From Bolinopsis microptera (lineage: Eukaryota > Ctenophora > Tentaculata > Lobata > Bolinopsidae), in NCBI RefSeq assembly GCF_026151205.1, contig NC_087079.1, positions 8,794,635 to 8,858,634 of the forward strand: 64,000 bases of DNA. Direction: 5' to 3'. Under the pieces are notes generated by a model. It was given only the letters and a program-made list of their open reading frames with translations, was not told where the DNA came from and did no database searches. Numbering within the stretch: the first letter of the stretch is position 1; each line of letters opens with the position of its first letter. Positions 4,081 through 61,020 of this stretch are shown here, piece by piece. The position numbers and the translations under genes are program-made.

Positions 4081-7000
4081 CTGTGCTCCCCACTTTTTCT
4101 TATCCGATAAGTCAACATTTGTACCGAACTGTATCATCTTGAAATTAGTGAACCGCTTCGGTCCACGTCTTTTAACGCTGGCTAAGTCTTCGTGCTGAAA
4201 TACAGGAATGTTAAGGTTGTAATGCAGCCAAGACGGTTTTAGTATGTACATTAAAAATTATACTTCAGTTTTATATATAACTTAATATATCGTCACCTAT
4301 ATTATAGCTTGTACATAAAAAATATTGGTACCTCACTTTTATTATTTATAGATCTTTAAAACTTAATATCATCATCAAAAATTCAAAAGTTAGTACAAAT
4401 TTAATGGAATGTTATGTAATGAATAGTTCCAAACCTTGTCATTGCCTGATCTGTCTTGTTCTTCCTGTAGGAATTCTCTAAAAGTGCTAGCTTGGTATTG
4501 AGCATATTTTGTTATCGTTGAGTGGGAACGTGTACTTTCACACAGCCACTGCTTCTTTCTTCCCTGCCCGTTCTGAGATAATGTTAGTTTAGATAAATTT
4601 CGTGACCGATAAAGTTTATTACGCTGTAGCACTGATCTACCAAAATCGAATCACTTATTGAAATTGAACTGCAAGTTAAAGAATTCACATTTTTGACTAA
4701 TGACTGATGATGTCATGTTGTACAACAAAAGATAAACAAAACAGATCGAATCTAAACTAAAATTCGTAATCTGATCTACCTGAACATCCCAATTCTCGTC
4801 GGGAGACTGCTGCCACTGTGTCCTCACTTCCACCGGGTGGTCAGGGTTACTGTTCAACAAAGTCCGTGTGTTAAACATGGTCAAGTCCAGTCCCAGGACT
4901 TTGCAAAGTCCTTTGATGACAATGACTGGTTGTTGGGATTCCACACACAGGTCCCGGAGTGTTTTGGAGAATGCGTCTTCCCGCGTGGGAACCTGGAGAA
5001 GAAATGATGGGGTTAGGTGTGTGATAACAATAACATGAACCAGTTTTAAGCAGTATTTCGGATTCAAATTATATAGAAAAAAACTTTAAGCTGGCATCGC
5101 ATTAAAGCAGGGATTGGATTCTCATGACCGAAAGACATCATTTAAATCAAAATTGAAATATTTTCATGAATAAACGGAATTTAAAATATTTCATAGCACA
5201 TCGAGAAATATTTTGATTGTTGAGCAATGAATCCATACGTGCATACACATTACACAATCTAAGATATTAGAGGAAGTTTATCACAAATCCGGGCCCTGGG
5301 GTGAATGTTGTGACTACTTACTAGGGTTGAGTGTGTGATTACTTACTCTGATAGAGGGTGTGGTAGGGTTGAGTGTGTGATTACTTACTCTGATTGAGGG
5401 TGTGGTAGGGTTGAGTGTGTGATTACTTACTCTGATAGAGGGTGTGGTAGGGTTGAGTGTGTGATTACTTACTCTGATAGAGGGTGTGGTAGGGTTGAGT
5501 GTGTGATTACTTACTCTGATAGAGGGTGTGGTAGGGTTGAGTGTGTGATTACTTACTCTGATAGAGGGTGTAGTAGGGTTGAGTGTGTGATTACTTACTC
5601 TGGTAGAGGGTGTGGTAGGGTTGAGTGTGTGATTACTTACTCTGATAGAGGGTGTGGTAGGGTTGAGTGTGTGATTACTTACTCTGATAGAGGGTGTGGT
5701 AGGGTTGAGTGTGTGATTACTTACTCTGATAGAGGGTGTGGTAGGGTTGAGTGTGTGATTACTTACTCTGATTGAGGGTGTGGTAGGGTTGAGTGTGTGA
5801 TTACTTACTCTGATTGAGGGTGTGGTAGGGTTGAGTGTGGCAGGAGGAGGAGGGCGGGGAGGAGGAGAGGGTGGGGCGTTGTATACTTGCTTCATATCAC
5901 TGGCCTCTGACGGTATCTTTGCTGCCCAATGAGTCGGAACTGCAAATTTGGCTGTTAGCTCATCCTCCGATTATAACTTCAACAAAACATCATGATTCAA
6001 TCATATCTTCTGCATGAACAGTTAATACAATTACTAGTAGTTTAACTCGATTAAAAAGAATCATTTTGGACAATAAATCTTAGAATGACGACATAGTGTC
6101 GTACCTTCAGGTTTCTTGTCGAGTTTATTATCAGTTGAATTACCATCGCTAGTATCCATCTTCTCCTCTTTTTGTTGAGAAAATTTGCTCTACAAAATAT
6201 TTAAATAATTAAATAAATATGTATATTCTAACATTTATAACACGCTTCGACAGATACCCAAAAGAAGATACATTTAAGACATTCAAGCACGACTTAGAAC
6301 GGAAATATGATTTCCCGAGTGAATCAGCGGACATACAAAAGAAACTTTTAACGATATATCTAATTTATATCAAATTAACTATCTCATAAATACTAAATAA
6401 TAGCCCAATTAACACATGAATGAATCATATGCCACATTAAAACAATAAAATTGGCAGTTAAAATTCACAGATAAGTAGACAATCTGTTCCACCAATCATC
6501 TTACATTCAATTAAGCATTTAACAGTCTAAGATACAAAATAAAATATATGAAGTACGCTATTCTGACGCACGAGATGTTGGGTTTTGATCATTTTAAGGC
6601 TGTGTGTTGGCAAATTGAGGTCGGCTTTGGCAACTTTGCGGTCGGGTTTAGGTAAGATCAAGGTCAGAATATGTTGAGTCCCCATATAATATGTTAGAAT
6701 ACCTAAAGATACAAAACTCACGTCATTCTTAGTCTCCTTCTTGCTAGTGAGCTGAGCGGGTATGGGTAGTCTCCAGGCCTCCTGTATCTGGGGCAGACTG
6801 CTGTGTTGAGCTGCTCCTGTTCCTGATTTGCTGTTCAGCTGGCGTGATATCGCCTTTATGCGAGCCTGAGAGAGGTATTGTTATCAATAAGTCAATAGGT
6901 GTAGGATAACCTGGGCACGGCCAAAACTTTATATATTTTGATTTTAAACCGTCTAAGTAAAGATCTTCTTGGCTAAAACTCTATCGCTGGAGCTCAGATT

Positions 7001-13866: not shown

Positions 13867-15634
13867 AACTAGAGGCAGGGAGGCAGTAAACTAGAGGCAG
13901 GGAGGCAGTTGTAATAAACTAGAGGCAGGGAGGCAGTTGTAATCAACTAGAAGCAGGGAGATAGTTATAATCAACTAGAAGCAGGGAGGCAGTTGTAATA
14001 AACTAGAGGCAGGGAGGCAGTTATAATAAACTAGATGCAGGGAGGCAGTTGTAATAAACTAGAGGCAGGGAGGCAGTTGTAATAAACTAGAGGCAGGGAG
14101 GCAGTTGTAATAAACTAGAGGCAGGGAGGCAGTTGTAATCAACTAGAGGCAGGGAGGCAGTTGTAATCAACTAGAGGCAGGGAGGCAGTTGTAATCAACT
14201 AGAGGCAGGGAGGCAGTTGTAATAAACTAGAGGCAGGGAGGCAGTTGTAATAAACTAGAAGCAGGGAGGCAGTTATAATCAACTAGAAGCAGGGAGGCAG
14301 TTGTAATAAACTAGAGGCAGGGAGGCAGTTGTAATCAACTAGAGGCAGGGAGGCAGTTGTAATCAACTAGAGGCAGGGAGGCAGTTGTAATCAACTAGAG
14401 GCAGGGAGGCAGTTGTAATCAACTAGAGGCAGGGAGGCAGTTGTAATCAACTAGAGGCAGGGAGGCAGTTGTAATCAACTAGAGGCAGGGAGGCAGTTGT
14501 AATCAACTAGAGGCAGGGAGGCAGTTGTAATAAACTAGAGGCAGGGAGGCAGTTGTAATAAACTAGAAGCAGGGAGGCAGTTATAATCAACTAGAAGCAG
14601 GGAGGCAGTTGTAATAAACTAGAGGCAGGGAGGCAGTTGTAATCAACTAGAGGCAGGGAGGCAGTTGTAATCAACTAGAGGCAGGGAGGCAGTTGTAATC
14701 AACTAGAGGCAGGGAGGCAGTTGTAATCAACTAGAGGCAGGGAGGCAGTTGTAATCAACTAGAGGCAGGGAGGCAGTTGTAATAAACTAGAGGCAGGGAG
14801 GCAGTTATAATAAACTAGAGGCAGGGAGGCAGTTGTAATAAACTAGAGGCAGGGAGGCAGTTGTAATCAACTAGAGGCAGGGAGGCAGTTGTAATCAACT
14901 AGAGGCAGGGAGGCAGTTGTAATAAACTAGAGGCAGGGAGGCAGTTGTAATAAACTAGAAGCAGGGAGGCAGTTATAATCAACTAGAAGCAGGGAGGCAG
15001 TTGTAATAAACTAGAGGCAGGGAGGCAGTTGTAATCAACTAGAGGCAGGGAGGCAGTTGTAATCAACTAGAGGCAGGGAGGCAGTTGTAATCAACTAGAG
15101 GCAGGGAGGCAGTTGTAATCAACTAGAGGCAGGGAGGCAGTTGTAATCAACTAGAGGCAGGGAGGCAGTTGTAATCAACTAGAGGCAGGGAGGCAGTTGT
15201 AATAAACTAGAGGCAGGGAGGCAGTTGTAATAAACTAGAAGCAGGGAGGCAGTTATAATCAACTAGAAGCAGGGAGGCAGTTGTAATAAACTAGAGGCAG
15301 GGAGGCAGTTGTAATCAACTAGAGGCAGGGAGGCAGTTGTAATCAACTAGAGGCAGGGAGGCAGTTGTAATCAACTAGAGGCAGGGAGGCAGTTGTAATA
15401 AACTAGAGGCAGGGAGGCAGTTATAATAAACTAGAGGCAGGGAGGCAGTTGTAATAAACTAGAGGCAGGGAGGCAGTTGTAATAAACTAGAGGCAGGGAG
15501 GCAGTTGTAATCAACTAGAAGCATGGAGGCAGTTGTAATCAACTAGAGGCAGGGAGGCAGTTGTAATAAACTAGAAGCAGGGAGGCAGTTGTAATAAACT
15601 AGAGGCAGGGAGGCAGTTGTAATAAATTAGAGAC
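13867..15634. repeat. 28-bp minisatellite, about 62 copies, with higher-order structure
   Basis: Unit 'ctagaggcagggaggcagtt' followed by 'gtaataaa' or 'gtaatcaa'. Units carrying 'agaagc' and 'gttataat' come back as a block at 13965, 14273, 14581, 14973 and 15253, that is at 308, 308, 392 and 280 bp (11, 11, 14 and 10 units), so multi-unit blocks were copied. The array is 0.9 kb upstream of the KDM6A start. No ORF. Confidence 0.95.
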
Positions 15635-15639
15635 AGGCT

Positions 15640-26488: not shown

Positions 26489-61020
<34,532 letters not shown>

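What the first reader, a model, noticed from the sequence alone, without database searches (positions are those of the whole stretch)
5322..5939. Splice-donor minisatellite: twelve in-frame copies of an exon end plus GTAAGT in a KDM6A gene
The 42-bp repeat unit is the very end of exon 13 (LNPTTPSIR, conserved in UTX) plus its donor and the first intron bases. The array offers twelve identical donors, each in frame, with no stops, so choosing donor n would add n-1 copies of a 14-residue [18 protein letters not shown] repeat just before the pre-JmjC linker. A tandem repeat that duplicates a splice junction in a chromatin enzyme could act as a length-variable linker or splicing rheostat and would be polymorphic between individuals.
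Basis: partly seen in the sequence, partly recalled or inferred. Interest (0 to 1): 0.85.

Follow-up and report, generated by a model that had tools for sequence, protein, structure and literature searches.

The report
Splice-site minisatellite in KDM6 gene
A short DNA repeat at the end of one exon of a histone-demethylase gene, probably of a comb jelly, copies the splice signal twelve times; it is real, but similar repeats sit at exon ends of other genes of this genome and the best reading is that the first signal does the work and the rest are passengers.

Summary
On the minus strand, 12 complete, indel-free 42-bp units (5832-5329) repeat the last 24 nt of a KDM6 exon plus GTAAGT and 12 further intron bases. 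They are in frame and stop-free until TAG at 5316-5314. Splicing from the first donor (5808) to the acceptor (AG 4994-4993) gives a gap-free match to human KDM6B.

The surroundings change the interpretation. Assembly statistics match Bolinopsis microptera, a comb jelly. The same gene has a second exon-end donor array, as do sushi-like, dynein heavy chain and Na/H-exchanger exons; copine-like and dynein exons carry acceptor-side arrays. Triple donor motifs at minisatellite spacing are 13- and 29-fold commoner than the reversed motif (single motif 1.23-fold).

Of nine donor arrays read in frame, only this one is open to its last full unit; chance gives about 1.3 of 9. In the others read-through meets a stop, so an early donor must normally serve. 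I read the KDM6 array as a junction-spanning tandem expansion lying in the intron; in-frame longer isoforms are possible but unproven. The kind is in print (IFI6; boundary repeats in human genes). Its frequency in one genome is the interesting part. No RNA data were available.

The parts
5809..5939 (-).
   Evidence: [17 protein letters not shown] aligns without gap to human KDM6B (alignment printed) and over equal lengths to UTY and KDM6A; upstream boundary read from splice signals only
5322..5839 (-). 42-bp minisatellite (12.3 copies) spanning exon end, donor and first intron bases
   Evidence: TRF; unit listing; single match in genome
5329..5832 (-). twelve complete 42-bp units, each 24 bp exon tail + GTAAGTAATCACACACTC; donors at 5808, 5766, 5724, 5682, 5640, 5598, 5556, 5514, 5472, 5430, 5388, 5346
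   Evidence: U1 duplex energy -9.9 for each of the twelve
5304..5328 (-). degenerate 13th copy with donor GT at 5321 (out of frame) and first in-frame stop TAG 5316-5314; joins the rest of the intron
   Evidence: U1 duplex -7.2
4993..5303 (-). remaining intron up to acceptor (AG 4994-4993)
   Evidence: sequence
4780..4992 (-). next KDM6 exon (VPTREDAF...ENWDVQ), donor CAG|GTAGAT
   Evidence: E 1.1e-19 to KDM6B together with the exon tail; single match in genome

Best explanation
It is an exon-end (splice-junction) minisatellite. A stretch spanning the exon/intron junction of KDM6 was duplicated in tandem, probably through the short shared CACA on the exon and intron sides, and then expanded to about 12 copies. 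Every copy had to carry exon tail plus donor because the seed did. The spliceosome mostly uses the exon-proximal donor (5808), so the normal protein is made and the array lies inside the intron. Because this intron is phase 0 and the unit is 3 x 14, occasional use of later donors would give in-frame proteins with extra [14 protein letters not shown] copies; that is tolerated leakage rather than an evolved switch. It is one of a class: exon-end and exon-start minisatellites occur at several genes of this genome. Shown: anatomy, frame, gene identity, other members. Inferred: seed mechanism, donor choice, lack of function.
For: Anatomy and frame. First-donor junction gives a gap-free match to human KDM6B and equal-length matches to UTY and KDM6A, so the insert-free form is the norm among solved KDM6 proteins. 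The gene looks intact: JmjC pieces 4e-19 and GATA-like zinc finger 3.1e-22 in Pfam; the PGHQENN exon matches UTY at 1.8e-25. Same architecture elsewhere: second array in the same gene at the end of the GATA-like exon (L032 3428-3640); sushi-like exons (L034, L048); dynein heavy chain (L049); Na/H exchanger (L044/L045); a 32-bp family (L033/L035, open frame only); acceptor-side arrays in copine-like L037 and L033/L035 and in a dynein exon, L050 (3.4e-9 to DNAH5). Triple AGGTRAGT 1176+1403 against 85+112 for the reversed motif; triple AGAGTAAGT 105+159 against 8+1; single AGGTRAGT 9340+9892 against 7906+7709. Openness of the KDM6 array is at chance level.
Against: No RNA: donor use is inferred. 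The 12 donors are equal by U1 pairing, and with equal competing donors the one nearest the 3' splice site is often favoured (general knowledge; SRSF1 promotes the intron-proximal choice in DOK7, passages of PMC5585400), which would favour donor 12 or 13, not 1. IFI6, the printed precedent, does use downstream repeat donors. The 18 intron-derived bases are identical in 12 of 12 units while the 24 exon-derived bases vary at three sites: too few changes to test selection. Of 27 arrays (24 unit families) not chosen by a donor motif, only 5 (4 families) were at a junction I could recognise, and 0 of 6 in the 36 kb taken at unselected places. Pfam gave no KDM6 family for the exon-13/14 junction protein itself; its identity rests.
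Confidence: 0.7

Rival explanations
1. Splicing rheostat or length-variable linker: several donors are used, giving KDM6 proteins with 0 to 11 extra 14-residue repeats (up to 154 residues) before the linker exon, with functional consequences.
For: Phase-0 intron, 42-bp unit, no stop through 12 units; equal donor strength; IFI6 transcripts use two downstream repeat units as donors (PMC4526556).
Against: Openness is what chance gives among nine donor arrays (1 seen, 1.3 expected); sister arrays in dynein, Na/H exchanger and the other KDM6 exon would truncate the protein if later donors were used; the solved human proteins have no insert at this point.
Confidence: 0.17
2. Constitutive coding repeat: the last good donor (5346) is always used and the protein carries 11 extra units.
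For: Intron-proximal donors are often preferred among equals (general knowledge); the frame is open to that donor.
Against: The inserted form departs from every solved KDM6 sequence matched (9 of 9 matched over equal lengths, 3 alignments printed); most sister arrays cannot be read that way.
Confidence: 0.1
3. Assembly artefact or collapsed/expanded repeat error.
For: Only one assembly is available; repeats can be mis-sized.
Against: 518 bp is short against the PacBio reads named for the B. microptera assembly (PMC10232365, passages; species inferred); one match in the genome; interspersed unit variants; several independent arrays of the same build.
Confidence: 0.03

Closest known systems
IFI6 (6-16, G1P3) splice-donor minisatellite, human (Turri, Cuin and Porter 1995, Nucleic Acids Res 23:1854)
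   [quoted passage not shown] downstream repeat units are used as donors, giving three mRNA species (introduction of PMC4526556, passage read; the 1995 paper itself is not held, only its title was seen in reference lists).
   Different: Other gene, other phylum, other unit; in IFI6 donor use is reported, here it was not measured.
Internal tandem repeats at exon-intron boundaries of human genes in segmental duplications (PMC2812944)
   Same: Minisatellites of on average 30-bp units, some at exon-intron boundaries, that can be kept in or spliced out of the transcript (passages incl. abstract).
   Different: There a set of recently duplicated human genes, with novel introns formed in repeats; here an existing junction is copied 12 times, in a gene with one match in its genome.
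Tandem repeats of comb-jelly genomes
   Same: Abundant: 13% of Hormiphora californensis by TRF (passage of PMC8527503).
   Different: The passages I read (12 of 13 places) do not mention junction-spanning arrays.

Membership tests
KDM6 (UTX/UTY/JMJD3) demethylase | Segment before JmjC similar to human KDM6 | tested here: met
   9 distinct PDB sequences matched, KDM6B, UTY or KDM6A in each, best 1.1e-19 (KDM6B)
KDM6 (UTX/UTY/JMJD3) demethylase | JmjC domain with the HxE and second His | tested here: met
   Pfam JmjC 4e-19 on two pieces joined by X; PGHQENN exon to UTY 1.8e-25; AGAIHWVQA read; that these are the iron ligands is recalled
KDM6 (UTX/UTY/JMJD3) demethylase | GATA-like zinc finger after JmjC | tested here: met
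   Pfam KDM6_GATAL 3.1e-22
KDM6A in particular (N-terminal TPRs) | TPR array | not tested
   upstream exons were not assembled; KDM6A versus KDM6B not resolved
Splice-donor minisatellite (IFI6 type) | Tandem units each holding a donor consensus, starting at a real exon end | tested here: met
Splice-donor minisatellite (IFI6 type) | More than one unit used as donor in mRNA | not testable with these tools
   no RNA data
Splice-donor minisatellite (IFI6 type) | Copy number polymorphic | not testable with these tools
   one assembly; one match in it
Coding tandem repeat | Selection on the reading frame across units | tested here: inconclusive
   three variable sites in 12 units (two synonymous, one replacement); openness not above chance

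The most novel reading that the evidence does not exclude
In this comb-jelly genome tandem amplification repeatedly strikes exon/intron junctions. Many genes carry arrays of up to dozens of copies of their own donor or acceptor, so that splice-site multiplicity, intron length and, where phase and unit length allow (as in KDM6), protein length evolve and may vary between individuals by repeat number. KDM6 would be a case in which a chromatin enzyme gains a tunable 14-residue repeat.
Probability: 0.3. Interest if true: 0.75.

Novelty: new member of a known kind. Interest (0 to 1): 0.47.

Why it matters
As a single case it extends a known curiosity (the IFI6 donor minisatellite) to another phylum and a chromatin enzyme. 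The larger point is that one genome seems to hold many independent splice-junction minisatellites, in donor and acceptor versions; I recognised 11 unit families (7 among donor-motif arrays, 4 among others; two of the 11 by open frame alone). That is a natural experiment on how the spliceosome chooses among up to dozens of nearly identical sites, and a simple route to intron growth and new isoforms. It can be tested directly: the B. microptera annotation used Iso-Seq and RNA-seq reads (PMC10232365, passages).

Tried and rejected
Chance or simple low complexity: rejected. Dispersed repeat or transposon: rejected, one match. COX1 search for species identity gave nothing; the SSU rRNA search did not complete. 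Species by a text search for the assembly size: the one animal genome listed, a Panagrolaimus phased assembly of 264.7 Mb with 876 contigs and N50 559 kb, did not match; Bolinopsis microptera did. Use of in-frame openness as evidence for coding: rejected. Selection test on unit variants: abandoned, too few changes. Unselected sample L039-L042 (36 kb): 6 arrays, none at a recognised junction; a result against high frequency. The L033 exon found no relative in Pfam or the PDB, so that family stands on an open frame. Set aside from the junction count: L036 28-bp array (about 30 nt before an acceptor), L046/L047 (unclear), L036 41-bp array (coding-like on both sides, unclear), L035 37-bp x 42 (cut by the fetched end). 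C4:676257 was listed but not fetched, and the 9-bp control array at C1:7.91 Mb was not fetched.

A CAGGTAAGT triple search did not complete and was dropped.

Full report
Observation. On the minus strand TRF finds a 42-bp array at 5322-5839, 12.3 copies, 98% matches, no indels. Listed unit by unit there are 12 complete units, 5832-5329. Each holds 24 bases of exon tail (AACCCTAC...ATCAGA) and GTAAGTAATCACACACTC. Eleven read [14 protein letters not shown] and one [15 protein letters not shown] 13th copy lacks 17 bases, still carries GTAAGT (5321), and brings the first in-frame stop at 5316-5314. The array has one match in the 264,652,675-base genome, at the window itself.

Gene. Joining the exon tail at donor 1 to the next exon gives [17 protein letters not shown]..., which aligns without a gap to LNPPTPSIYLESKRDAF of human KDM6B. 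The search matched 9 distinct PDB sequences at E <= 0.001, each KDM6B, UTY or KDM6A (best 1.1e-19). The three printed alignments are KDM6B; the UTY and KDM6A matches cover equal lengths in query and chain. Pfam did not name the joined exon pair. Downstream exons, in L032, give JmjC (Pfam 4e-19) and the KDM6 GATA-like zinc finger (3.1e-22), and the exon with PGHQENN matches UTY at 1.8e-25. So this is an apparently intact KDM6 gene. KDM6A versus KDM6B is not resolved and the TPR half was not tested. The linker exon has one match in the genome.

Whose genome. C1 is 26,206,493 bases and the total 264.65 Mb. Table 1 of PMC11797021 (section read) gives Bolinopsis microptera 265 Mb, largest chromosome 26.2 Mb, 13 chromosomes, GC 38.5%; the window's GC is 37.1%. 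The table has 346 scaffolds, here there are 232 contigs; this mismatch is unexplained. I take the species as very probable, not proven.

Origin of the array. The exon side of the array begins ...GCCACACTCAACCC and the intron side ends ...GTAAGTAGTCACAACATTC, while each unit boundary reads ...AATCACACACTCAACCC. The shared CACA is where a first tandem duplication could have been primed; this is inference. Any array seeded on this stretch must copy the donor in each unit.

Not alone. Searching the genome for three AGGTRAGT at 8-38-base gaps gave 1176+1403 matches against 85+112 for the same pattern read backwards. Three AGAGTAAGT gave 105+159 against 8+1. The single 8-mer gave 9340+9892 against 7906+7709. 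These are counts of copies, not arrays, and listings are cut at about 100 rows. At the level of arrays, the listing shows 5 arrays within the first 2.51 Mb of C1. The listing for the reversed motif shows 5 arrays over C1 and C2 up to 13.5 Mb, one of them a 9-bp repeat that supplies 55 of the 100 listed rows. Clustering near chromosome ends may inflate the first figure: the 6 arrays listed lie within 0.7 Mb of an end (the list is cut in C4), and the list starts at an end.

What the donor-motif arrays are. I fetched 12: the 5 listed, 5 of the 6 listed, and 2 from the plus-strand list. With KDM6 they make 10 unit families. Seven families sit on a splice junction. They are KDM6; a 32-bp family at two loci (exon ...YLMIALFTQ|GTACTTAC, open frame only, no hit in Pfam or the PDB); a sushi-like exon of L034 (Pfam Sushi 0.024, below cut-off); L037, where the exon lies on the other strand and the array copies its acceptor (Copine 1.5e-4, below cut-off); L044/L045, a Na/H exchanger exon (2.1e-10); L048, a sushi-like exon (0.0026, below cut-off); and L049, a dynein heavy chain exon (2.5e-13 to DNAH2, query residues 9-111 of 112, one copy of an internal duplicate left out). 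One more is probable (L043, open frame only, no Pfam hit). L036 is not on a junction and L046/L047 is unclear. In two of these families, the 32-bp one and L037, the search motif lay antisense to the exon.

Arrays not chosen by a donor motif. There are 23 in the window, L032-L037 and the unselected L039-L042, and 4 of the 5 listed control arrays (L050-L053): 27 arrays, 24 unit families by my count. Five arrays, 4 families, are on junctions. They are the second KDM6 array at the GATA-like exon (...KTLDGFVVLEE|GTTAGT); an acceptor array at L033 and L035 (open frame only, no Pfam hit); a second sushi donor array in L034 (Sushi 5.1e-5, above cut-off); and an acceptor array before a dynein exon in L050, where the match to DNAH5 (3.4e-9) starts at the first exon residue. 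L053 looks like a coding repeat inside an exon. The 36 kb of unselected sequence gave 0 of 6. So junction arrays are frequent, but most arrays I saw are elsewhere. Whether junctions are struck more often than a neutral placement with purging of exon-internal arrays would give remains open.

Function. For nine donor arrays I read the exon's frame into the array (for L043, L044, L048 and L049 only the first 2 to 5 donors had been fetched). In 7 of 9 a stop comes before the second donor, in one (L034, 34-bp unit) after six donors, and only KDM6 stays open through 12 donors. The frame was chosen by homology or as the open frame; for L033 a second open frame would pass two donors. A simulation with units of 28-55 bp and introns of 37% GC gives 32% multiples of three and 46% open among them, 14.7% jointly, hence 1.3 of 9 expected. 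The open frame of KDM6 is therefore no evidence for use. It does mean that leakage to later donors would be harmless to the frame. The sister arrays imply that the spliceosome of this animal can pick the exon-proximal donor, or at least enough of it, in the presence of many copies.

Known kinds. The IFI6 minisatellite with multiple splice donors (title in the reference lists of three papers; paper not held) is the same kind of object. Boundary tandem repeats in human duplicated genes are described in PMC2812944 (passages). For comb jellies, a search for ctenophore with minisatellite gave 2 papers, both unrelated by title and abstract start. A search for ctenophore, tandem repeats, intron and splice gave 9, of which I read passages of one, PMC8527503; it reports 13% tandem repeats and does not mention junction arrays in those passages. 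This is not proof that nothing is in print.

Verdict. A real and well-formed splice-donor minisatellite in KDM6. The rheostat reading is not excluded but not favoured. The frequency of such arrays in this genome is the lead worth following.

Noticed in passing
L032 3428-3640 (C8:8789427-8789639), minus strand: A second exon-end donor array in the same KDM6 gene, at the GATA-like zinc-finger exon: 26-bp and 7-bp units, GAG|GTTAGTTG; early in-frame stop.
   Followed up: yes
L049 260-586: A dynein heavy chain exon holds a 171-bp tandem duplication (57 codons, 100% matches by TRF) just before its own donor array.
   Followed up: partly
L050 402-1152: A 35-bp x 21 array copying the acceptor side of a dynein heavy chain exon, found with the reversed control motif.
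   Followed up: yes
L032 about 5128-6063, plus strand: An open frame that looks stomatin/SPFH-like (recalled, not tested) lies antisense within the span of the KDM6 gene; nested genes are common in the comb jelly Hormiphora (PMC8527503 passage).
   Followed up: no
window 3225-1, minus strand: Long non-LTR-retrotransposon-like open frame within the span of the KDM6 gene (judged by eye, family not searched).
   Followed up: no
L053 413-549: A 33-bp in-frame array that looks exon-internal and coding (QHSPLSATSLV-type), found with the reversed control motif.
   Followed up: no
C1:25.8M, C2:102k and 269k, C4:125k, 662k, 676k: The 6 AGAGTAAGT arrays listed (list cut in C4) lie within 0.7 Mb of a chromosome end; KDM6 does not (C8 at 8.8 of 18.5 Mb).
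   Followed up: partly
window 13867-15637, 58181-58889, 35324-35940: A 28-bp x 63 minisatellite and two very long, nearly pure dinucleotide tracts, TC x 354 and AC x 308.
   Followed up: no
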